Notes under the pieces: model-generated
Told to the model about the DNA's origin: nothing
Databases searched by the model: none
What the model saw: only the letters and a program-made list of their open reading frames with translations
Program-made: the position numbers and the translations under genes
Assembly (NCBI RefSeq): GCF_004745825.1
Contig: NZ_SRLA01000003.1
Coordinates: 620,001 to 684,000, forward strand
Reading direction: 5' to 3'
DNA: 64,000 bases
DNA from: Hymenobacter fodinae
Lineage (GTDB): Bacteria; Bacteroidota; Bacteroidia; Cytophagales; Hymenobacteraceae
Part shown: positions 54,011-64,000 of the stretch, piece after piece
How the letters are laid out: each line of letters starts with the position of its first letter
Numbering within the stretch: position 1 is the stretch's first letter

Positions 54011-55306
54011 TCAAGGCCAATAGAGCTTAACTTGTATTTCCGTCAAGTTTGCGGCATGACGGGTCAGGAGTTCGAGTTGAATAGATGTCAATGGGGTAAG
54101 ATTAGTACCGACTTGGCATACCACCTGCCATTCATCTATAGTTAGGTCACGAGCGGCCAAATCGGCATATCCCACCTGTTGTTCAAGATGTTCTGTGAGA
54201 GCAAAACGATACTCTTTTGGATTAGCTATCCAGTCAGCACGTAATTGTCGGGCTGCCATCACCGCTGGGGAAATGTTTCCTTGGGCTAGATTATCGATAA
54301 AGCCTGGAATGCTGTTTTTTAATTGCCATCCTAGTGACAGATAAGCAACACACTTACTGTGCTCCGTTGCACGCTGGAAAAGGTTGGCCATCATCTGCGC
54401 ATTCTTGATGCGGTGCATGAACAAATCCACTGTGCGCAGTAGTAAGGCCGCAGTATTTGGATATTGGCGGCTACCTAAGGGGCTCAATCCAGCCCCAGCA
54501 TCCGACACGACAATGGTATTGCACTCATAGCGGCTGTTGGCCTGTGTAAGTTTCTGGATACCCTGATTATCATAAACCCCGCCGTCGATGAGCTGCGGTT
54601 GGGCGCGGCTGGCATCGGCTGGTTCTCGAAAGTATTTGGCGTCAATGGTAATAGGTGTGAAAGCGAATGGTACGCAGGAGGAAGCGGCTACAGCCCGTGC
54701 CACCGGGAAATCAGCCGCATCGAAATGCACCGGGGGCTGGTAGTAAGCATACGTCGAGTCTGCCATCCATTCCCGCGAGAAAGTAAATGGCCGTCCCGTC
54801 TGTAAATTCGACGTGCCAATAGCTAGAATAGGCGTGGAACGAAGGTGTTGTAACGTTTGGCCTTGAAAAAAAAAGGCATCGTAGGCCTGCTCAATCTCTC
54901 GACTAACCGGGAGCAGGCGAAACTGGTAGCGAAGCACCACAAGTACCAAGCCGACTAGGGGCACTAGCGAGAAGGGGGCCCAGTGAGTAAAAAGCAAAGC
55001 CCCGCTTGGCACCAGAAAGGCTAAAACCACCAATAAGAAACGCACGAAAGACCAAGACAGCAGGGCACGGCGAATGACGTTGCAGCACAGCAACGCCTGT
55101 ATCATCTGGTCATAAAACTCCTCAAAAGTCCCTTGGTGCAAGCAATAAGCTGCTCCGGTGATGGACCCACCCGAGATAGTAGAAATGACATCAATGGAAG
55201 CCAGCCGCCCCATCTCATGCAGTTTACGGAGCGTGCCCAAATGAAAGGCAGCGGCCCGGTAGCCACCACCAGACAAGGCTAGGCCAAAGCGGCGAGTAAA
55301 TGACAT
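54011..55306 (-). CDS. Membrane patatin-like phospholipase
   Basis: A 431-residue protein. The oxyanion-hole motif is SGGGYRAAAF at residues 12-21, the nucleophile Ser48 lies in SGGSITGA (Thr in place of the last Gly of GxSxG), and the second dyad residue is in IDGGVYDN. Two hydrophobic helices (about residues 92-140, RFLLVVLAFLVPSGALLF and FSLVPLVGLVLVVLRYQF) are inserted between them. It would hydrolyse membrane lipids; patatins occur as effectors in several phage-defence systems. Composition is lower in GC than the neighbours. Confidence 0.88.
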   Translation of the reverse strand: MSFTRRFGLALSGGGYRAAAFHLGTLRKLHEMGRLASIDVISTISGGSITGAAYCLHQGTFEEFYDQMIQALLCCNVIRRALLSWSFVRFLLVVLAFLVPSGALLFTHWAPFSLVPLVGLVLVVLRYQFRLLPVSREIEQAYDAFFFQGQTLQHLRSTPILAIGTSNLQTGRPFTFSREWMADSTYAYYQPPVHFDAADFPVARAVAASSCVPFAFTPITIDAKYFREPADASRAQPQLIDGGVYDNQGIQKLTQANSRYECNTIVVSDAGAGLSPLGSRQYPNTAALLLRTVDLFMHRIKNAQMMANLFQRATEHSKCVAYLSLGWQLKNSIPGFIDNLAQGNISPAVMAARQLRADWIANPKEYRFALTEHLEQQVGYADLAARDLTIDEWQVVCQVGTNLTPLTSIQLELLTRHAANLTEIQVKLYWP

Positions 55307-55387
55307 GCGTGCACGGGTAGTTAAGTAGAGTGTTGGCTGTCAACTAGGGCTGCTATTCTGCAACTGCTGTTTTCGCAGGCCGAGCGG

Positions 55388-56242
55388 CTAATAGTCATCT
55401 TTGAAAGCTCGTACCGCTCTCAAAAAATCAGCTATGAGCAGGCAAAGCTGCTTTTTTTCGGCTGACATGAGCCTGTTGAAATTCTTATTGGAAAGAGGTT
55501 GAATAAGAGTTGCTTGGATTGCATCGTAGTAGCCTGCATTGCCACGCTCCAGTTTGTAGCGTACCGCCGGCGAAGTAAAATGCTTCTTCTGCTTGGCCTT
55601 ATAGCGGTCAGCTTCGCGGCCTGATATAACGCCATCCATCATAAACTGATGGGGAAAGCCCTCGATAGTAGCGCTGAAAGAATTACGCAATGCCTGAATG
55701 GACAAGCTCTTGTCGGGCTCGTACGTCACCACACAGGCCTTATCAACTTCATCTTTCAAATAGTCGGTTAGAACCTGGCTGAAATCCTGTGTGTCGAAGC
55801 GCTTGTCTTCGTTCTTCACGGGCTGCCCGAGTTGCTGCGGCGCAAGGTATTGCTGCACGAACTGGCGTAGCACTTTCAACTCCTCAGCAGTTTCTAGCTG
55901 CGAGCCTATCTCAATGGAATTGCTGTTGGAAGAACCCAGCAGATTCAGTGATGTGATAAGGCCACTCGTTTCGTTGAAGTAAAACTTAGCGTGCAGCCAG
56001 GGCACGAGTTGTGGCGTAATACCCAGTGCTTCTACCTGTTCTTTACTGGTTGGGTCGTTGGGTTCGTGCCGGGTAAAGAAGGTAATGCGTACGCCCCGTG
56101 CATGAGCAGCCTTAATGGCGGTGGCCAGTTGCTTCCAGTGCGTTAGGTTGACGTAAGGTGATACCAGCACGAGTTCCTGCTGCGCCTCGTGGATGAGGTC
56201 GAACAACGCGCCGCTAATTTTATGCGGAGGTAGAATTTTCAC
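55388..56242 (-). CDS. PLD-like (HKD) domain protein
   Basis: A 284-residue protein with one HKD-like motif: HAKFYFNE at residues 84-91 and LLGSSNSNSIE. The Asp of the canonical motif is replaced by Glu91. A single copy means a dimer would be needed for activity, as in Nuc-type nucleases. Proteins of this class can cleave DNA or lipids. The start is GTG at 56242, 11 bases after the preceding small gene, so they are probably co-transcribed. Confidence 0.8.
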   Translation of the reverse strand: MKILPPHKISGALFDLIHEAQQELVLVSPYVNLTHWKQLATAIKAAHARGVRITFFTRHEPNDPTSKEQVEALGITPQLVPWLHAKFYFNETSGLITSLNLLGSSNSNSIEIGSQLETAEELKVLRQFVQQYLAPQQLGQPVKNEDKRFDTQDFSQVLTDYLKDEVDKACVVTYEPDKSLSIQALRNSFSATIEGFPHQFMMDGVISGREADRYKAKQKKHFTSPAVRYKLERGNAGYYDAIQATLIQPLSNKNFNRLMSAEKKQLCLLIADFLRAVRAFKDDY

Positions 56243-56253
56243 TGGGTCGAAAG

Positions 56254-56613
56254 TCAGGCTTCTTTGTAGGGCTGCGTAACGGCTAAGCCTTGCTCAATCA
56301 ACGGCAGTAGCTCAGCCGCGCTATTGCTGCCTGCAATGCGCGGTAATAGGGCTTCTAGTTGCTGCACTTCCACGGGAGAAAGCTTGCGTCCCCGGCGAGG
56401 CTTAATAAAGGCTGCTATGGCTTTTTCCAAGTATCCCTTCACCGCTGCCAACTGCTTGGCGGCCGAGCCCAGCGCACTAATTTTCAATCGACCAGATTCG
56501 GTATTCTGCAAGTTGCGGAAGTAGTCCAGAGATGCTCCTTTTCGGTGTCGGTCACAGCTGTGAGCTCGGCGAATGAATATTTCATAAGACATCGAGGAGG
56601 TATAGTCTTCCAT
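56254..56613 (-). CDS. Hypothetical protein upstream of the PLD gene
   Basis: A 119-residue basic soluble protein (MEDYTSSMSYEIFIRRAHS...; later FIKPRRGRKLSPVEVQQLEALLP). No family recognised. It lies just upstream of the PLD-like gene and looks translationally linked to it. The ATG at 56613 is chosen; a start at 56592 (MSYEIF) is also possible. Low GC like its neighbours. Confidence 0.6.
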   Translation of the reverse strand: MEDYTSSMSYEIFIRRAHSCDRHRKGASLDYFRNLQNTESGRLKISALGSAAKQLAAVKGYLEKAIAAFIKPRRGRKLSPVEVQQLEALLPRIAGSNSAAELLPLIEQGLAVTQPYKEA

Positions 56614-56850
56614 TAAAAGGCGGGATGAGAAAATGCTAGTGTGATAAGCAAGCACGCTAAGATACTTAGAAGGCAGAAATGTAAGCCGAGATAGTGCGAC
56701 AGTAACTCTCTGCTAAAAGCAGCGATTTTGGCAACTGATTTTTATAGGCTTTCACAAGCTAACCATCCCCGCACTCTTCCTCAACCACCTCGCTTACTGT
56801 TGTGCCTTCAGCGGGACCAAACTACCGCTACTGCTTATGCCTTCAACAGC

Positions 56851-57858
56851 CTAGTGATAGCGGGCGACGGCCTTGTTGAGCAGCTTCTGCATTGAATCGC
56901 GAAGTGAGTCAGGAGCGAGTACCTGCAGGTCAGGCCCGAAACTGAGTAGTCGGGATTTAAGTTCTTGATTTATAATCAGATATATCTCTATTTCTATGCC
57001 TTTAGTGTCTTGACTTACTGTGACTTGACTAGGGTGCAAAGGCTTTGTAAGCACATAGGGTGCCCGCCCTGCTCTGATGTATAAGCGAATATTCTCAACC
57101 TGTGAGTCTCTCTCTGGTATCGTTACCCCAATGAGGTGGTCGAAGTAAGTGCTAAAATCAGTATCGGTAGGCTGAAAAGCCACGGAGCTTGCACTAAGCC
57201 CCTTAATGCGGTCGAGCGCATAATTTTGTATATGAGGCCCTTTGGCTTCGTTGCGAGCTAGTAGGTACCAGCGGCCATTATAGGTTTTAAGCAGATAGGG
57301 ATGCACTACTTCTGAGCTAGCCTGCTCTTCCCGGTAGGGTTGATACTGCATGACTAGTGGTGTCTTTTCCCGGATAGCCTTGTAAAGCGGTTTTAAATAC
57401 TCAGTACCAATGTATTCGGGTGCGGCTTCTAATTGTAGAATAGAATTGGTTGCGGCCCCGGCACTGGGTTGTTTTCGTTCCAGACGCTGAATCAGATCAT
57501 CTAAGTCATCTGCCAAGCCCAGACCGCGCAATGCCTTCAGTGTGTGCAGGCTCTGATGAAGTATGAGCAGGTCTTCACTCGTGAGCGGTGTCTTGTGAAT
57601 CGAGTACTCGGGGTCTGTATAGTGATACCCACGCCGCCGGCTGTACGCAATAGGAGCATTGTGATGGGTTGGCAACTTCATGTTGTGCAAGTCGCCTTTC
57701 AGTGTCCGCTCGCAGACGCCGTTCTTATCAGGTGTAGTTTCCAGATAATCTTCCTCCACTGCTTTCAGCAAGTCCTGGATAGTCCAAGGACGACCACCTT
57801 GCTGTAAACAGCGGTCAATAATGAGGTAACGATTGTAGGCGTTTTTATTAATGGGCAT
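56851..57858 (-). CDS. WYL-domain transcriptional regulator
   Basis: A 335-residue regulator. The N-terminal part (RYLIIDRCLQQGGRPWTIQDLLKAVEE) fits a winged HTH. The central WYL domain has NGRWYLLARNEAKGPHIQNYALDRIKGL, and the C-terminal WCX extension ends QKLLNKAVARYH. WYL regulators such as CapW and BrxR control many phage-defence operons and sense nucleic-acid-like ligands. It is divergent from the MBL/E2-E1-JAB operon, with two perfect palindromes in the shared gap. That it controls the operon is inferred. Confidence 0.9.
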   Translation of the reverse strand: MPINKNAYNRYLIIDRCLQQGGRPWTIQDLLKAVEEDYLETTPDKNGVCERTLKGDLHNMKLPTHHNAPIAYSRRRGYHYTDPEYSIHKTPLTSEDLLILHQSLHTLKALRGLGLADDLDDLIQRLERKQPSAGAATNSILQLEAAPEYIGTEYLKPLYKAIREKTPLVMQYQPYREEQASSEVVHPYLLKTYNGRWYLLARNEAKGPHIQNYALDRIKGLSASSVAFQPTDTDFSTYFDHLIGVTIPERDSQVENIRLYIRAGRAPYVLTKPLHPSQVTVSQDTKGIEIEIYLIINQELKSRLLSFGPDLQVLAPDSLRDSMQKLLNKAVARYH

Positions 57859-57958
57859 CGGGACACGGGAAAATAGCCGCTCGCCACCTGCGCAGGTGAA
57901 AGAGCCTGGCGAAGAACGGTCTTTTCCTGGATTACAAAAGGCAGTAAGGACTTTAGAG

Positions 57959-57978
57959 AAATTTCATCGGTGAAATTT
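57959..57978. promoter_or_regulatory. Palindrome A in the WYL/MBL intergenic region
   Basis: AAATTTCA (57959-57966) and TGAAATTT (57971-57978) are perfect arms around TCGG. It lies about 100 bases upstream of the WYL gene start in the divergent promoter region, and so is a candidate WYL operator. Confidence 0.5.
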
Positions 57979-58047
57979 TATCGTTGTTTATCAGGTGATT
58001 GTGGCAAAATATGGGGTATTGAGAAAAAAATAATGGAGCAAGTCCTT

Positions 58048-58070
58048 AGTGTGCAAAAAGACTGCACACT
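58048..58070. promoter_or_regulatory. Palindrome B in the WYL/MBL intergenic region
   Basis: AGTGTGCA (58048-58055) and TGCACACT (58063-58070) are perfect arms with a seven-base spacer. It lies 165 bases upstream of the MBL gene start. A terminator role is unlikely because no T tract follows. The 58071-58234 stretch holds no supported gene. Confidence 0.5.
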
Positions 58071-58234
58071 TGAGCGTTTGCTTTGCCGGGGCAATGAAGG
58101 AAAGCCCATGCTTCTGGTCGTAGCCGGACATCGACCGGGGCGCAGGATTGACTTCTTGCCAACTGTTGTTTAACCGAACCCATTACGTCGCAGCCTGCGG
58201 CCACATGGTTTCCAAACCGTAACTGCTTTGCTAC

Positions 58235-59371
58235 ATGCACCAGATAACCATTTTTAACCTCGGAAACGCCGATACCTCGCGGATTGACCTCGCGAACGGC
58301 AAAAAGCTGCTGATTGACTACGCCAACATGCGGTGTGCCACCGACCCGAAAGACAAGCGCATCAACCTGCCGGTGGAACTCCGCGCTGACTTGCTCAATG
58401 CCAAGCGCGACAATTACGATGTTGTTGCCTTTACGCACCTCGACAACGACCACACGTGCGGCGCTTCAGAATTTTTTGAGTTGCTGCACGCAGCTAAATA
58501 CCAGGGCGCTGGCCGGGTAAAAATCAAAGAGCTATGGGTTCCTGCGGCTGTCATTGTAGAAGAGGGCTGTGAGGACGAAACCCGCATTCTGCGTCAGGAA
58601 GCTCGCTACCGCCTACTAAAAGGTGAAGGAATTCGGGTATTCTCCGGCCCGGGTCAACTCGACGATTGGCTGGCCTCCAAGAACCTCACGGTTGCCGACC
58701 GGGCGCACCTCATTACGAACGCCGGCACCCTGATTCCCGGGTTCAACCTGGCTACCGACGGGGTGGAGTTCTTCGTGCATTCACCGTTTGCCGGCCGTAC
58801 AGCCGGCGGGGGGTTGGCCCTAATGGACCGCAACAGCGACGCCCTTACCTTCCAGGCAACATTTGAGGAGGGCGGCCGCAAAACTCGTATGCACTTCTTC
58901 TCCGACATCGACTGGGAAGTCATCAAATCCATCGTGAAGGTGACCGAGTACTATGGCCGGACGGAGCGCCTGGAGTGGGACGTCTTTAAGATTGCCCACC
59001 ACTGCAGCTACCTCTCGCTCAGCAGCGAGAAAGGCACCGACGTGACAGTGCCGGATGCACACGTGAAAAAGCTATTCGAAACGTACGGGCAGAGCCGGGG
59101 CCGCCTCATCTCTACCAGTAAGCCAATTTCCAGCAACGACGAGGACAAACAGCCTCCGCACCGCCAGGCGGCGGCTTATTACGAAGCTCAGGCAACACGC
59201 CTCGGTGGGGAGTTTCTGGTCACGATGGCGCACAAGAGTATCCTATATCCTGAGCCCATCGTCATCAAGATTGACCAATTGGGAGCCAGCATTGGCAAGT
59301 TGGCGGCGGCTGCCGCCAGCATCGCAAGCGGCAACACGCCTCCCCCACGGGCTGGCCACCAAGGCAACTAA
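58235..59371 (+). CDS. ComEC-like MBL-fold hydrolase of the E1/JAB module
   Basis: A 378-residue MBL-fold protein. The metal motif is THLDNDHTCG (His68, Asp70, Asp72, His73), with HxDxDH in place of HxHxDH. The later segment FKIAHHCSYLSLS resembles the HHGS motif of ComEC/Rec2-type MBL domains, with Cys for Gly. The C-terminus is Pro/Gly-rich. It is the first gene of a two-gene operon with the E2-E1-JAB protein, to which it is linked by a short gap with a Shine-Dalgarno-like site. Substrate unknown. Confidence 0.85.
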   Translation: MHQITIFNLGNADTSRIDLANGKKLLIDYANMRCATDPKDKRINLPVELRADLLNAKRDNYDVVAFTHLDNDHTCGASEFFELLHAAKYQGAGRVKIKELWVPAAVIVEEGCEDETRILRQEARYRLLKGEGIRVFSGPGQLDDWLASKNLTVADRAHLITNAGTLIPGFNLATDGVEFFVHSPFAGRTAGGGLALMDRNSDALTFQATFEEGGRKTRMHFFSDIDWEVIKSIVKVTEYYGRTERLEWDVFKIAHHCSYLSLSSEKGTDVTVPDAHVKKLFETYGQSRGRLISTSKPISSNDEDKQPPHRQAAAYYEAQATRLGGEFLVTMAHKSILYPEPIVIKIDQLGASIGKLAAAAASIASGNTPPPRAGHQGN

Positions 59372-59376
59372 GGAGG
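59371..59376 (+). promoter_or_regulatory. Strong Shine-Dalgarno-like site before E2-E1-JAB gene
   Basis: AGGAGG lies three bases before the ATG at 59380 and six before the ATG at 59383. The second spacing is nearer optimum, so the true start may be 59383. Such a site is unusual in Bacteroidota and may reflect foreign origin. Confidence 0.5.
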
Positions 59377-59379
59377 CAG

Positions 59380-61656
59380 ATGATGGAACTACCTGAAATT
59401 GCCTATTATCCTATAGCGGGCGAGCCAGTGGCGGCTGACGCGCTGCTACTGCCTAAGGCTGTCGAAATGGTGCAAGCCCTGCAAAGTCAGGGCTTGCCCT
59501 ACGTGCGGCTGCTAGAGTGCCGACGCACACCGGAATACGAAATAGTCGTGGTGGATATTGAGGCCGAAGTGCCTCAGCATCCGGTACACGATGTGCGTAC
59601 TGTCGAGCGCATTGCTTTTGGCTTCGCCCCAGCCGATACCGACCACCAGGTTGTGTTGGCACTCCGAGAGGATTTTCCGTTGGTGCCCCATCTTCATTTT
59701 GGTGGCGAAAACATGCCGCGTAGCCTGTGCCTGTACCAGACCGCCTACGCCGACCTGAAGCCAACTTGGACCGCCGCCGCGCTGCTCCGGCAGTTGCAGC
59801 ACTGGCTGACTCAGACGGCACGCGGTGAGCTGCACGCTGCCGACCAGGCCTTGGAACAGGCTTTCTATGCGCCAGCCGAGCGGCTCGTACTACCGTCCGC
59901 TTTCTTTGCTGCTGAAGCAACCGATTTGGAGCCCGTGTGCGCCCGCATTGTCAGCAACGTGTTGGGGCAGACAACGCTGGTGGCGCTGCCACTGTCGGCC
60001 AGCCCGCCCACAGCAGGCTGGCAGGTACAGTTCGCCAGCTTTGTGTACACCACTCCGCCCCAGGTACACGTGCTGATTCAGGAGCAGCCTCGCACCTTGG
60101 CAGCATTGCAGACCTACTTGTCAACGGAGAACACCGATTTTCTGGATGCCTTGCGCCAGCACCTGGCCACCAGCAAAGGCCGTTCGGGCTTTAGCTGGGA
60201 CTATAAGCTGCTACTCATCGTGCGGATGCCCAAGCAGCGTACTGCAGAAGGCCCTATTGAAGGCATGGAAGTGTGGGCTTTTGCCACAGTAGGTACGTTA
60301 GCTGAAATCGGCACGGACGTTGGAATTTGGCGGGCTCAGCCTAACAAGGTGGTTGAGCTGTTTTACACTGATGCAAGCCGCACCGGCCAGCAGAGCCCGT
60401 TGGTGTTGCTTAATCCCGTGTGTGCCCTGACGCGCGAGCTAGCAGCGGCATATAACGACGTACCCCCCACCACAACCCGCTTTGTGGCCATTGGGGCAGG
60501 CAGTTTAGGCTCGCAGGTCGTTAATAACCTAGTAAGGGCTGGACAGGGCAACTGGGTGTGGCTGGACGAGGACTACTATCAGCCTCACAATACGGCCCGC
60601 CACTATTTGCCCGGCAGTGCGGTCGGTATGGGTAAGGCCGAAGCCATGGCAGCCTCCCTGCAGACCACGTATGAACAAGCGGAGGTGCAGGCTATTGCAG
60701 CCAACGTGCTGAAGCCAGTTTCAGACTCGGTACGGAATGCCTACGAAGCGGCCGAGGTCGTACTGGATATGTCGGCCTCGGTAGCCGTAGCGCGGCACCT
60801 GACCTTGGGAATAATAAGCCCAGGCCGCCGCATGTCGCTGTTTCTGAATCCGTCAGGTACAGACCTGGTGCTGCTAGCCGAGCCACGGGACCGCACCCTG
60901 CGCCTCGACCAGCTGGAGATGGAATATTACCGGTCGCTGCTCCGCCAGCCCGCCCTACAGTCGCACCTGCACCTGGCCGGCCGACCCATTCGCTACTCCC
61001 ACGCCTGCCGCGATGTTTCGGTGCGACTGCCGCAGGACCAGGTTGCTCTGCACGCAGCTATTGGAGCCCGAGCAGTACGCACGACGGTAGCCGAGCCGGA
61101 AGCCCGCCTCAAAATCTGGCAGGCTCAGCCCGATTTGACGGTAACAGCCCATGAAATCGAGGTATCTCCTTACATAGAAACGGTGATGAGCGGCTGGATG
61201 GTAAGCCTTTCACAGCAACTAGTACGGGAACTACACGCCCAGCGCCAGGCTCGCCTGCCCAATGAAACAGGGGGCATACTGGTGGGTGTGTTTGATACCC
61301 AGCAGCGCCGGCTGTACATCGTGGACCTTATTCCCTCGCCAGCGGACAGCTTGGAGTCGCCCACATCTTATGTGCGCGGCATTGAAGGGGTGTCCGCCGA
61401 ACTAGCCCGCATCAGCGAATGCACTGGTCGACAAGTAGTGTACGTCGGCGAATGGCATTCTCACCCGAACGGCTACAGCATCCGGCCCAGTGACGACGAT
61501 AAGAACCTGTTTGCCCGCCTGCAGCGCGAGCGGCAGGCCGAAGGTCTGCCGGCCGTCATGGCCATTGTGGGGGAAGATGGTGCCCTGGGGTGGCATGTGG
61601 CGACTATGGCTGCTGACGCGGAAGGACCGCATCTGGGCAGCCAGGCTATTAGTTAA
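59380..61656 (+). CDS. E2-E1-JAB triple-fusion ubiquitin-like conjugation protein
   Basis: A 758-residue protein of three parts. Residues 1-165: prokaryotic E2/UBC-like domain with PHLHFGGENMPRSLCLYQ; Cys117 is the likely thioester residue with His104/His106 nearby. Residues about 365-580: ThiF/E1-type adenylation domain with FVAIGAGSLGSQVV, DEDYYQPHNTARH and a candidate Cys543 (HACRDVSVRL). Residues about 620-758: JAB/JAMM protease, Glu629, HSHP (His693, His695) and Asp707. It would activate, transfer and remove a ubiquitin-like or other protein tag, as in type II CBASS Cap2/Cap3 and Bil systems. It ends overlapping the convergent ATPase stop by eight bases. Confidence 0.88.
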   Translation: MMELPEIAYYPIAGEPVAADALLLPKAVEMVQALQSQGLPYVRLLECRRTPEYEIVVVDIEAEVPQHPVHDVRTVERIAFGFAPADTDHQVVLALREDFPLVPHLHFGGENMPRSLCLYQTAYADLKPTWTAAALLRQLQHWLTQTARGELHAADQALEQAFYAPAERLVLPSAFFAAEATDLEPVCARIVSNVLGQTTLVALPLSASPPTAGWQVQFASFVYTTPPQVHVLIQEQPRTLAALQTYLSTENTDFLDALRQHLATSKGRSGFSWDYKLLLIVRMPKQRTAEGPIEGMEVWAFATVGTLAEIGTDVGIWRAQPNKVVELFYTDASRTGQQSPLVLLNPVCALTRELAAAYNDVPPTTTRFVAIGAGSLGSQVVNNLVRAGQGNWVWLDEDYYQPHNTARHYLPGSAVGMGKAEAMAASLQTTYEQAEVQAIAANVLKPVSDSVRNAYEAAEVVLDMSASVAVARHLTLGIISPGRRMSLFLNPSGTDLVLLAEPRDRTLRLDQLEMEYYRSLLRQPALQSHLHLAGRPIRYSHACRDVSVRLPQDQVALHAAIGARAVRTTVAEPEARLKIWQAQPDLTVTAHEIEVSPYIETVMSGWMVSLSQQLVRELHAQRQARLPNETGGILVGVFDTQQRRLYIVDLIPSPADSLESPTSYVRGIEGVSAELARISECTGRQVVYVGEWHSHPNGYSIRPSDDDKNLFARLQRERQAEGLPAVMAIVGEDGALGWHVATMAADAEGPHLGSQAIS

Positions 61657-64000
61657 GGCTAAGCGGGTAAAGCTGGGTTTGGTATTTTGCATCGCAGCCG
61701 CAGCCGCGATGGTCGGTGCGCAGGTTCTTGGGGATGTGGCCACACTGCTGGCAGGCTAGGGCCTCGGCCAGGTCGTAGGCTGCCTGCCCAAACTCGCGTA
61801 CATCGTTATCCGACCAGTCGTTGCCCAGGGCGTTAAAGTGTGCGCCCACTTCGTTGCGAATAAGCTTGATAGCATCAAGCTTTTCGTGGTGCTGCTTCAG
61901 GGCGATTTCCATCCAGTTTTCTTCCAAGTGTGGTGCGAGGGGATGCCCGTGTGTATCCCGTCGTATCCGCCGCACTTTCGCCGTCAGGAACAGCCTTTTG
62001 GTGGTGCGCAGCAAATCACCCAACGTATGCCCGCGGCCCGGCCGGTACTTCAGGCTACACTCGTAGTAAGCGGCCAAGTTATCGAGGACATTCTCCAGCA
62101 GTACGCCAGCCTTTGATGCTACTGCTTGCCGGTCAAAGTTGTCTGCTTCCAGGGCAGCGGCCAGTTCGGTCGCCAGTATCTGGTCCTCGTGCGGCCGCAG
62201 GCCCCGAGCCAGCGTCCAGCGTTCGAGCTTGAGCAGATGCACGCTGGCACCGCTGATTTTGTAATAGTCGTGCCAGAGCCGGTTATGCGTGGCGATAATG
62301 ACTTGTTGAAAATTAGCTGCTTGCGCCGCCAGCAAATCCGAAATCCGACGGAAATGCTGCGCGTCAACCGACGTAAATACGTCGTCGAGCACCAGCACCA
62401 ATTGCTTCGGATTGTCGCGCTTGGCTAAAGCCAGCCACAGACAGAACCCGAACGTGTCGAGGTGTGACTCGCTGAAATAAGCTTGGGGCACCACCCCTTC
62501 TTTATCTTCAAAGGTGGCGTGCTGGTCGAGCGAAGCACGCTTTGCGTCATCCATTTCGAGCCGGTGCAGGCCAATTTTTTCGCCGGGATGGATAAACTGG
62601 TACAGGGCATTCACTTCCCCAATGATTTCATCCAGAATGGCCTGTACAAAGTCACGGCGCTTATTTACTACCAGCGTGCAGGCCTTGCGCAGGCGGTCCA
62701 ATACAGCCTGTAGATGAGTCACCTCATCCGTACTCTTGGTCAGCGCCTGTGCCTGTGTTTTGATGTTGTTGTAAACGGCAAGCCGGGTTTGCAGCGTGTC
62801 GCACTCCGATTGCACCGCTTCTTTAACGGCAACCAGCTTCTCGCTTAGTGCCGCGACCTTAATACTGGTGTCATCATTGGCCATGGCCAATTCTATACCC
62901 TGCGCCGGCCAGTCGATATGCAACTCCTTCACAGCAGCTGGCTCGTGCTTCGTAAAGTGCGCCCCCATAGACTGTATTACCCGCACTAGTTCCTGATTAC
63001 AGCGCGTCTTTTCGTCGCTTGCTGTTTTGAAGCGAGCCTGGGCTTCGGTTACTTTTTGTAGGAGTAGGCGGGAGGTTTGCAGTTGGGCGAGCTGCGTCTG
63101 AATACGTGAGCGAAGTGCATCTGCCTGCACGCTGTTATCACACAAGGGGCAGCTGCTCGGCTCAACTGGCGGTGCTAAATATCGCTCGGCAGAACTCAGC
63201 AGGCTGATAAGCTCAGTGCTTCTGGCAGTGGCATCCTGATTCTGGTCTTGCAGGGCAGTGTTGGCGGTATCTAGGCCATCTTGTTCAAGGGTGAACTTGG
63301 CTTGGGACTGCTGCCATTGCGCCACGATACCTGCGAGTTGCTGTATTCCAGCAGGGCCTTTGGCCAGGAAGCCGAGTCGGCTTTGCAGCTCGCTCACATT
63401 TTCAGAAGCGCGGTGCTTAGCCCAGGTCAATGCGTTCTGAACTGGTTCGCCCGGCTGCCTTTCCTGCTCCCAGAGTGTTTGCAATGATTCCGCTGCCTGC
63501 GCTCGGGTAGCTTCAGCCGTGCCAAGTTGCCTTTCTACGGCGTTACAATCTACTCGCAAAGCTGCTTCCGCACTATCGACCCCTGAAACGGCGATAAACT
63601 TTTGAATGGCTTCGTAACGCTTTGCCGGCGTAGCCTCGATGAGTTGAAGTAAATCGCGCCGACGTAGTACCCGAATTTCGGGCATAACAGCATCCGCGCT
63701 GCCAGATGAGATGACAACCGTCTTGCCGCTTAGCGTGGCCTTGCGGGTGTTCCCCGCTTGGGTCGTCAGTTCCGCTTCGACCGATTGTGCATCCCGCGTA
63801 AGCGAAGCCACATACTTTTGCGGCGCTTGTATGCCGGGCCGGATGAGTGAGCCAAACGATGTATTCCCGATTACATCCAGCGCATCCACAATCGTGGATT
63901 TACCAGTGCCGTTTTCCCCGAAAATGACAACAACATTGGTTTTCACCCCACCTTTCTCAGGAGTGAATTTGATAGTGACCGGCTGCGTAGCACCCCGAAA
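61649..64000 (-). CDS. Rad50/RloC-like ATPase with HEPN-type C-terminus (partial)
   Basis: The gene runs past the right edge; 783 residues are visible. The frame is open from 64000 with FRGATQPVTIKF, so the GTG at 63946 is not the true start. Walker A is FGENGTGKSTIVDAL, CPLC (63134-63151) resembles a zinc hook flanked by coiled coils, and Walker B is LVLVLDDVFTSVD. The C-terminal region has RNEVGAH (61838-61858), an R-N-x4-H HEPN nuclease motif, and a Cys cluster (CQQCG, CGC). This recalls RloC-type defence ATPases. It is convergent with the E2-E1-JAB gene. Confidence 0.85.
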   Translation of the reverse strand, partial: FRGATQPVTIKFTPEKGGVKTNVVVIFGENGTGKSTIVDALDVIGNTSFGSLIRPGIQAPQKYVASLTRDAQSVEAELTTQAGNTRKATLSGKTVVISSGSADAVMPEIRVLRRRDLLQLIEATPAKRYEAIQKFIAVSGVDSAEAALRVDCNAVERQLGTAEATRAQAAESLQTLWEQERQPGEPVQNALTWAKHRASENVSELQSRLGFLAKGPAGIQQLAGIVAQWQQSQAKFTLEQDGLDTANTALQDQNQDATARSTELISLLSSAERYLAPPVEPSSCPLCDNSVQADALRSRIQTQLAQLQTSRLLLQKVTEAQARFKTASDEKTRCNQELVRVIQSMGAHFTKHEPAAVKELHIDWPAQGIELAMANDDTSIKVAALSEKLVAVKEAVQSECDTLQTRLAVYNNIKTQAQALTKSTDEVTHLQAVLDRLRKACTLVVNKRRDFVQAILDEIIGEVNALYQFIHPGEKIGLHRLEMDDAKRASLDQHATFEDKEGVVPQAYFSESHLDTFGFCLWLALAKRDNPKQLVLVLDDVFTSVDAQHFRRISDLLAAQAANFQQVIIATHNRLWHDYYKISGASVHLLKLERWTLARGLRPHEDQILATELAAALEADNFDRQAVASKAGVLLENVLDNLAAYYECSLKYRPGRGHTLGDLLRTTKRLFLTAKVRRIRRDTHGHPLAPHLEENWMEIALKQHHEKLDAIKLIRNEVGAHFNALGNDWSDNDVREFGQAAYDLAEALACQQCGHIPKNLRTDHRGCGCDAKYQTQLYPLSLN

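What the first reader, a model, noticed from the sequence alone, without database searches (positions are those of the whole stretch)
58235..61656. MBL plus E2-E1-JAB triple fusion: candidate ubiquitin-like defence system without a CD-NTase
One polypeptide carries E2 (Cys117), E1 (GAGSLG, Cys543) and JAB (HSHP, Asp707) features, coupled to a ComEC-like MBL protein and divergent from a WYL regulator. Type II CBASS uses Cap2 (E2-E1) and Cap3 (JAB) with a CD-NTase, and Bil uses a ubiquitin-like protein; neither partner is visible here. Target and tag are unknown, so this may be a distinct architecture. A related E1/E2/JAB operon class with MBL genes may already be known; a search must settle novelty.
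Basis: partly seen in the sequence, partly recalled or inferred. Interest (0 to 1): 0.85.

Follow-up and report, generated by a model that had tools for sequence, protein, structure and literature searches.

The report
6A-MBL ubiquitin-like defence operon
This is a two-gene bacterial operon of a type already on record as anti-phage; its hydrolase seems to carry a ubiquitin-like tail end of its own, so that enzyme may be what the partner protein attaches to other proteins.

Summary
In detail: 59380-61656 encodes E2 (Cys117), E1 (GAGSLG, Cys543) and JAB (Glu629, HSHP, Asp707) in one protein, behind a ComEC-like MBL (58235-59371) and divergent from a WYL regulator. The architecture is not new: it is operon type 6a of Iyer et al. 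2006, and both genes score far above the cut-offs of NCBIfam's 'anti-phage 6A-MBL system' models. The MBL ends in a disordered, variable tail that is nearly invariant only at Arg372 (64 of 68) and Gly374 (67 of 68), at or just before the C-terminus. 85 of 95 distinct MBL partners carry [RK]xG there, against 4 of 28 related MBLs outside such pairs; 64 of 95 end in Gly, against 0 of 28. Codons are degenerate, so selection is on protein. The best PDB match of the E2-E1 part is Cap2, which conjugates the CD-NTase C-terminus in type II CBASS. I conclude that the MBL probably replaces the CD-NTase as the conjugated protein. In 40 of 95 loci a patatin phospholipase gene adjoins the operon, in 17 a membrane-protein gene, suggesting membrane effectors. 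Conjugation, target and defence were not tested.

The parts
58235..59371 (+). MBL-fold hydrolase of the 6A-MBL system (378 aa), predicted conjugated protein
   Evidence: NCBIfam NF058524 375.7 bits, cut-off 220; AF2 pLDDT 91.8; best PDB match ComEC MBL 9ic4, Z 24.0; in 68 homologues H68, D72, H73, D224, H255, H256 are invariant and D70 is at least 90% conserved
59348..59356 (+). Codons of Arg372-Ala373-Gly374, predicted E1 substrate motif in the disordered C-terminal tail; Gly374 is the predicted adenylated and conjugated residue
   Evidence: R 64/68, G 67/68 in a variable tail; mean pLDDT 43 and 50 in the last two blocks; all synonymous codons used; DNA read
59357..59368 (+). Four residues after Gly374 (HQGN), predicted to be trimmed, perhaps by the JAB domain
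   Evidence: 31 of 85 tails with the motif carry 1-7 residues after the Gly, 54 of 85 end at it
59380..61656 (+). E2-E1-JAB triple-module protein (Cap2-Cap3 fusion, 758 aa)
   Evidence: NCBIfam NF058523 659 bits, cut-off 320; AF2 pLDDT 92.4; Cap2 best PDB match
59542..59919 (+). E2 domain (Prok-E2_A, residues 55-180), Cys117 at 59728-59730
   Evidence: 80.3 bits; Cys117 invariant in 67
60475..60792 (+). E1/ThiF adenylation core (residues 366-471); catalytic-type Cys543 at 61006-61008
   Evidence: 48.8 bits; Cys543 invariant in 67
61213..61575 (+). JAB isopeptidase domain (residues 612-732; Glu629, His693, His695, Ser704, Asp707)
   Evidence: 54.3 bits; residues invariant in 67
56851..57858 (-). 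WYL-WCX regulator divergent from the operon, presumed repressor
   Evidence: Pfam WYL 53.7 and WCX 40.8 bits; a WYL gene, divergent each time, lies upstream of 17 of 95 pairs, of which only 75 hold 1500 bp upstream
54011..55306 (-). Patatin-like phospholipase, possible effector of the operon (association inferred; not adjacent here)
   Evidence: Patatin 65.6 bits; its 6 homologues outside this genome among 395 genomes of the phylum each lie near an MBL-like gene, 3 of them at a canonical 6A-MBL pair

Best explanation
This is a 6A-MBL operon in which the MBL hydrolase takes the place that the CD-NTase has in type II CBASS. Proposed cycle: (1) the JAB domain trims HQGN so that the MBL ends at Gly374, a step not needed in relatives that already end there; (2) the E1 domain adenylates Gly374 and passes the MBL to Cys543; (3) the MBL moves to Cys117 of the E2 domain and is joined to lysines of a target (phage protein, host protein or another MBL); (4) the same polypeptide's JAB domain removes it. 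The MBL is thus both the tag and an enzyme, a ComEC-like hydrolase of nucleic acids or phosphodiesters, and conjugation switches or places that activity. In many relatives a patatin or membrane protein next door would carry out membrane damage. The WYL protein would control expression. Shown by computation: domains, invariant catalytic-type residues, tail conservation with its controls, gene neighbourhood. Inferred: conjugation itself, its target, trimming, MBL substrate, effector activation, defence.
For: Tail: R372 in 64/68 and G374 in 67/68 homologues, after a stretch (358-369) of 2.3-3.4 bits entropy per column, disordered in the model. [RK]xG in the last 14 residues: 85/95 MBLs against 4/28 MBL homologues outside the pairs and 0/20 ComEC-like proteins; ending in Gly 64/95 against 0/28 and 0/20. 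The stricter [PA][RKM]xG: 73/95 against 1/28, 8/766 other ORFs in the loci and 0/95 of the E2-E1-JAB C-termini. Terminal [RK]xG: 59/95 against 1/113 upstream genes of tight gene pairs. All six Arg, four Ala and four Gly codons occur, so it is not a ribosome-binding site. Grouped at 60% MBL identity, the motif is in the majority in 43 of 48 clusters. Positive control: two frames upstream of Cap2-like genes that PADLOC calls cyclases end FG and FA, like the conserved Gly/Ala of CD-NTases that Cap2 conjugates (PMC10097602, passages). E2-E1 matches Cap2 best. MBL gene upstream of E2-E1-JAB in 95/95 same-strand pairs, and identities of the two proteins correlate (r 0.77 over 90 pairs, 0 of 2000 permutations).
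Against: No thioester or conjugate was observed. 10 of 95 MBLs lack [RK]xG: L010, L011 and L013 end TQG, SQG and DHG; L023 and L111 have neither form; L039, L063, L082, L085 and L090 have C-termini unlike the family, perhaps broken frames, which I did not prove. L010, L013, L023 and L111 are over the 6A-MBL cut-off, so the exact motif is not universal in the family. I wrote the motif after seeing the tails. The pairs are not independent: at 50% identity there are 12 clusters, 9 with the motif in the majority. Background is not nil: 12 of 113 upstream genes have [RK]xG in the last 14 residues and 12 end in Gly; 69 of 766 ORFs and 14 of 95 E2-E1-JAB proteins end in Gly. A conserved C-terminal motif could be a docking or degradation signal. 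The window copy has four residues after the Gly, so it needs trimming. The paper behind the NCBIfam name was not seen.
Confidence: 0.75

Rival explanations
1. The MBL tail is a docking motif: its RAG end sits in the E1 pocket to hold the two proteins together, but no covalent transfer of the MBL follows, and the tag is some other protein, for example a host ThiS/MoaD-like protein.
For: Tail conservation alone cannot separate binding from chemistry. Some tails continue for up to 7 residues after the Gly, and some family members lack RxG.
Against: 54 of 85 motif tails end exactly at the Gly; E2 and E1 cysteines and the JAB residues are invariant in 67 homologues; no ubiquitin-like family among the window proteins scanned; in type II CBASS the same enzyme type conjugates its neighbour's C-terminus (PMC10097602 passages).
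Confidence: 0.13
2. The conserved Arg-Ala-Gly end reflects DNA selection, a ribosome-binding site or translational coupling for the downstream gene, not protein function.
For: The MBL stop often lies within a few bases of the next start.
Against: Arg, Ala and Gly use all synonymous codons; distance from the Gly codon to the called start runs from -110 to +442 nt; 113 other tight gene pairs show terminal [RK]xG once; in the window the AAGGAGG overlaps the stop codon, 12 nt after the RAG codons.
Confidence: 0.02
3. It is not a phage-defence system but a stress or plasmid-interference module on mobile DNA (this rival is about the role and could hold together with MBL conjugation).
For: 262 plasmid records hold a relative of the E2-E1-JAB protein at E up to 1e-20, 200 of them over at least 80% of it; MOB-suite of the 262 conjugative. 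A WYL regulator and mobility also fit other roles.
Against: NCBIfam names both families anti-phage; [quoted passage not shown] the window's 11.3 kb block also carries other defence-like genes.
Confidence: 0.1

Closest known systems
6A-MBL system (NCBIfam NF058523, NF058524); operon type 6a of Iyer et al. 2006
   Same: Same two proteins, same domain order E2-E1-JAB, MBL next door; both above equivalog cut-offs.
   Different: Nothing in the core. This locus adds a divergent WYL gene, a patatin gene 2.9 kb away and an AAA ATPase seen beside the pair only in Hymenobacter loci.
Type II CBASS (CD-NTase, Cap2, Cap3)
   Same: E2-E1 fold of Cap2, JAB isopeptidase, a non-beta-grasp neighbour with a conserved C-terminal Gly, patatin next door in many relatives.
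   Different: MBL in place of the CD-NTase; Cap2 and Cap3 functions fused in one protein; no cyclase among the window proteins scanned.
Bil (BilABCD)
   Same: E1, E2 and JAB functions with a tag whose C-terminus may need trimming (PMC11354881 passage).
   Different: Bil uses separate genes and a ubiquitin-like BilA (same passage); no such family among the window proteins scanned.
Lamassu LmuA, RT-associated MBL and ComEC MBL domains
   Same: Distant MBL relatives (LmuA 40.0 bits, RTasMBL 34.4 bits; ComEC structure).
   Different: Of 28 MBL homologues outside 6A pairs, 1 carries [PA][RKM]xG, 4 carry [RK]xG and none ends in Gly.

Membership tests
6A-MBL / Iyer type 6a | E2, E1 and JAB in one polypeptide in that order | tested here: met
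   Pfam domains in order; AF2; NF058523 659 bits, cut-off 320
6A-MBL / Iyer type 6a | Adjacent specialised MBL gene | tested here: met
   NF058524 375.7 bits, cut-off 220; 8 nt between the genes
6A-MBL / Iyer type 6a | Anti-phage activity (as named by NCBIfam) | not testable with these tools
   No plating data; '6A-MBL' occurs in 0 papers of the held library
Type II CBASS | CD-NTase in the operon | tested here: not met
   None among the seven window proteins scanned, 54011-64000; the genome's CD-NTase is on contig C14
Type II CBASS | Cap2-type E2-E1 fold | tested here: met
   7to3_A Z 25.4 over 509 residues
Type II CBASS | Cap2 joins its neighbour's C-terminal Gly/Ala to targets | not testable with these tools
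   Conserved C-terminal Gly found on the MBL; the reaction was not tested
Bil | Ubiquitin-like BilA gene in the operon | tested here: not met
   No ubiquitin-like family among the seven window proteins scanned
Bub | Bub operon genes | not tested
   No Bub model was searched for; BubCD structures appear only as weak Foldseek rows

The most novel reading that the evidence does not exclude
6A-MBL is a second way, after type II CBASS, of conjugating a whole enzyme that is not a beta-grasp protein: a nucleic-acid or phosphodiester hydrolase with an R-x-G tail is its own ubiquitin, and this module drives exchangeable membrane effectors (patatin, transmembrane proteins) without any cyclic-nucleotide messenger.
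Probability: 0.5. Interest if true: 0.82.

Novelty: new member of a known kind. Interest (0 to 1): 0.6.

Why it matters
[quoted passage not shown]). If the MBL is the substrate here, that list gains a widespread case with a direct test: change one glycine. It would also tie a hydrolase to membrane effectors without a cyclase, and it suggests a simple way to find further non-ubiquitin substrates: look at the C-terminus of the gene beside each orphan E1-E2.

Tried and rejected
A distinct new architecture: rejected, because the pair is NCBIfam 6A-MBL and Iyer type 6a. A hidden CD-NTase or ubiquitin-like gene nearby: none among the seven proteins scanned; the CD-NTase on C14 stands beside Iet genes, and the search of the genome with the 6A E2-E1-JAB family found only the window's own copy over the cut-off. 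The AAA ATPase at the right edge as a core part: rejected, found beside the pair only in five loci, the window's own and four Hymenobacter loci. The conserved tail as a ribosome-binding artefact: rejected. VIA-align rows do not cover the JAB part well, so absence of JAB rows there says nothing. Bub was not tested.

In the same 16, four upstream frames end FG or FA; PADLOC calls two of them cyclases (L015, L115) and finds nothing for the other two (L017, L018), so the positive control rests on two.

Literature: '6A-MBL' gave 0 papers. Searches for MBL with Cap2, JAB, E1/E2, Bil or patatin led me to passages in PMC1779556 (2006) and one sentence in PMC13373217 (2026) on MBL operons. I opened passages only of PMC10097602, PMC11354881, PMC11153139, PMC10419184, PMC12355090 and PMC13373217, and section 14 plus passages of PMC1779556; the other listed papers were seen as listings only. 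Ledvina 2023, Chambers 2024, Gong 2025 and Burroughs 2015 are not held. The library lacks most subscription papers and all preprints. I therefore do not claim that the MBL-substrate idea or the patatin link is unpublished, only that those searches did not find them.

Counts and what was dropped: the 95 pairs are distinct MBL sequences from loci with an E2-E1-JAB hit of at least 200 bits and an MBL hit of at least 100 bits on the same strand with gene starts less than 4 kb apart. Loci without a paired MBL were left out; in some the contig ends at the gene, in others up to 5.9 kb lie upstream. Alignment A3 used 67 of the 95 pairs plus the window after filters on origin, length and score and after dropping L039, L082, L085 and L090 by hand, which favours the motif; the 85/95 and 73/95 counts include those four. 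A4 also left out L040, whose ORF is short. The 766 control ORFs are mechanical ORFs, not all genes. Of the 28 control MBLs, 12 are 500-600 residues long and may be parts of ComEC-like proteins; of the 16 shorter ones, 3 have [RK]xG, 1 has [PA][RKM]xG and 0 end in Gly (recounted). One of the 16, L132 (84 bits), lies at a contig end, so it may be a 6A-like MBL whose partner is missing. The WYL count is a lower bound: 75 of 95 pairs hold 1500 bp upstream, and the window's own fragment L001 counts as without. The transmembrane group rests on BLAST linkage and a hydropathy window, so its 17 members may not be one family; a looser profile hits more and drifts.
Full report
What is there. The window lies in a 6.08 Mb genome at contig C9, 620001-684000. 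Its nearest named relatives at this locus are Hymenobacter, so I take its phylum to be Bacteroidota. The MBL gene (58235-59371) and the E2-E1-JAB gene (59380-61656) are eight bases apart on the + strand. A WYL gene points away from them at 56851-57858, and an AAA ATPase gene (61649-64036) meets them tail to tail. AlphaFold2 models both proteins with high confidence.

What it is. NCBIfam assigns both proteins to the 'anti-phage 6A-MBL system', at 659 bits (cut-off 320) and 375.7 bits (cut-off 220). The arrangement was described in 2006 as operon type 6a: a triple-module E2-E1-JAB protein almost always next to a metallo-beta-lactamase (PMC1779556, passages and section 14). That section names no ubiquitin-like partner for type 6a. 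[quoted passage not shown]). So the window holds a member of a known kind.

Spread. 262 plasmid records hold a relative of the E2-E1-JAB protein at E up to 1e-20, 200 of them over at least 80% of it; some of the partial ones may be CBASS Cap2. 31 of 5426 complete E. coli genomes match the pSE11-2 copy, which is itself over both NCBIfam cut-offs. In a draw of 395 genomes of the phylum, the window's own included, 15 match the E2-E1-JAB family at E up to 1e-30 and 7 exceed its cut-off.

The tag. The MBL model is confident to about residue 355; the last two blocks of the tail have mean pLDDT 43 and 50. In 68 homologues this tail is variable (2.3-3.4 bits per column over residues 358-369) except at its end: Arg372 in 64, Ala373 in 55 and Gly374 in 67; 46 of 68 have no aligned residue right after the Gly. 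Across all 95 distinct pairs, [RK]xG occurs in the last 14 residues of 85, and 64 end in Gly. Related MBLs outside such pairs do not show this: 4 of 28 with [RK]xG, 0 of 28 ending in Gly; 0 of 20 ComEC-like proteins have either. Other ORFs of at least 200 residues in the same loci have [PA][RKM]xG in 8 of 766 cases, against 73 of 95 MBLs; 69 of the 766 end in Gly. Among 113 other genes that sit just upstream of a same-strand neighbour, 12 have [RK]xG near the end, 12 end in Gly and 1 ends in [RK]xG, against 59 of 95 MBLs. The three residues use every synonymous codon, so the constraint is on the protein. Where residues follow the Gly (31 of 85), they are 1-7 long and variable; the window and its closest copies end HQGN, YQGN, RGN, SGN and RGLN. 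This is what a modifier precursor would look like.

Exceptions. Ten of 95 MBLs lack [RK]xG. L010, L011 and L013 end TQG, SQG and DHG. L023 and L111 fit neither form. Five (L039, L063, L082, L085, L090) have ends unlike the family. L010, L013, L023 and L111 are over the 6A-MBL cut-off, so the exact motif varies within the family.

Why this points to conjugation of the MBL. The best solved match of the E2-E1 part is Enterobacter Cap2, over model residues 21-595. Cap2 forms a thioester with the C-terminal Gly or Ala of the CD-NTase and joins it to other proteins (PMC10097602, passages), for example PspA in one system (PMC11153139, passages). In two loci with Cap2-like genes the upstream frame is a cyclase by PADLOC and ends FG or FA, so the same look at C-termini finds the known substrate type. 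The MBL lies upstream of the E2-E1-JAB gene in 95 of 95 same-strand pairs, and the sequence identities of the two proteins correlate (r 0.77 over 90 pairs, 0 of 2000 permutations). JAB residues are invariant in 67 homologues although 54 of 85 motif tails need no trimming, which suggests that deconjugation, not only maturation, is its task (inference).

The MBL as an enzyme. The sites H68, D72, H73, D224, H255 and H256 are invariant in 68 homologues and D70 is at least 90% conserved. The best structural match is the ComEC MBL domain (Z 24.0), followed by Pce phosphorylcholine esterase (21.6), CmlA (16.1), then RNase Z and RNase J near 15. A hydrolase of nucleic acids or phosphodiesters is the likely class; the substrate is not known.

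A possible effector. A patatin gene lies beside the pair on the same strand in 40 of 95 loci, 34 downstream and 6 upstream; at 60% MBL identity, 17 of 48 clusters include one. Of the 39 adjacent patatins of at least 300 residues, 38 have a Ser motif and 39 a DG[GAS]. A second group of 17 downstream genes encodes proteins with one to four predicted transmembrane stretches; one of them, L026's, is weakly related to Csx27. In the window the patatin is 2.9 kb away and on the other strand. Its homologues at E up to 1e-50 occur in 7 of 395 genomes of the phylum, and the six outside this genome all lie near an MBL-like gene. Three are at a canonical 6A-MBL pair (G190, G025, G322). One is at a divergent E1-JAB plus MBL pair whose MBL ends KEMGH (G361). 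One adjoins an LmuA-like MBL (G140). One has a weak LmuA-like protein (38 bits, no Pfam hit) one gene away (G166). This makes it a plausible, unproven member of the module. The 2006 paper says type 6a is 'usually with two genes', and my search for a paper with patatin and these terms found none that holds the word patatin.

Setting. Window 52865-64100 matches a Hymenobacter plasmid at 92.6% over 11,259 aligned columns, so the block moves as cargo. Besides the operon it carries Fic, patatin, PLD, WYL and AAA ATPase genes. A WYL gene, divergent each time, occurs upstream of 17 of 95 pairs, a lower bound. A WYL regulator, CapW, controls neighbouring immune operons in response to DNA damage according to PMC13373217 (passage, citing earlier work).

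Verdict. I did not see the paper behind the NCBIfam models, which may already report it.

Noticed in passing
window 52865-64100 against L118 (NZ_CP110140.1 plasmid): An 11.3 kb block with Fic, patatin, PLD, WYL, MBL, E2-E1-JAB and AAA ATPase genes is 92.6% identical to a Hymenobacter plasmid, with further matching pieces between 51116 and 52669: mobile cargo.
   Followed up: partly
window 61649-64036 (-): SMC-like AAA ATPase of 795 aa, weakly LmuB-like (64.7 bits for the part in the window), tail to tail with the operon; relatives beside the pair in four other Hymenobacter loci.
   Followed up: partly
window 55388-56242 (-): PLD-like protein, weakly related to MkoB and DrmC, between the patatin and a small ORF without family match.
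   Followed up: no
G000:C9:595368-596303: LmuA-like MBL (97 bits) about 25 kb left of the window, a possible Lamassu on the same contig.
   Followed up: no
L207 (G000:C14:20000-32000): CD-NTase (PADLOC cyclase 327 bits) directly beside IetS and IetA homologues.
   Followed up: partly
L211 (G361:C8) and L114 (viral contig): Divergent E1-JAB proteins (787 and 789 aa) whose upstream MBL-like proteins end KEMGH and RPMGLE: perhaps a sister class of 6A-MBL with an M-G end; L211 also has a patatin on the other strand.
   Followed up: partly
L212 (G140:C44) and L210 (G166:C1): Patatins of the same family near LmuA-like MBLs without E1-E2; L212 also has a ThsB-like TIR gene.
   Followed up: partly
L029, L049, L087 downstream genes: Small membrane proteins downstream of 6A-MBL; L029's matches the PADLOC candidate PDC-M48A (210 bits), and L114's MBL-like protein weakly matches PDC-M48B (32 bits), so PDC-M48 may be linked to this system.
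   Followed up: no
L102:1908-2627: A frame that reads as the first half of acetate kinase ends in the family-like tail PPRAG right before an E2-E1-JAB gene: a deletion, insertion or assembly join, unexplained.
   Followed up: partly
NZ_CP011136.1 (E. coli VR50 plasmid): An IS3 transposase is annotated inside the stretch that matches the 6A-MBL operon, which aligns in two pieces, so this copy looks interrupted.
   Followed up: no
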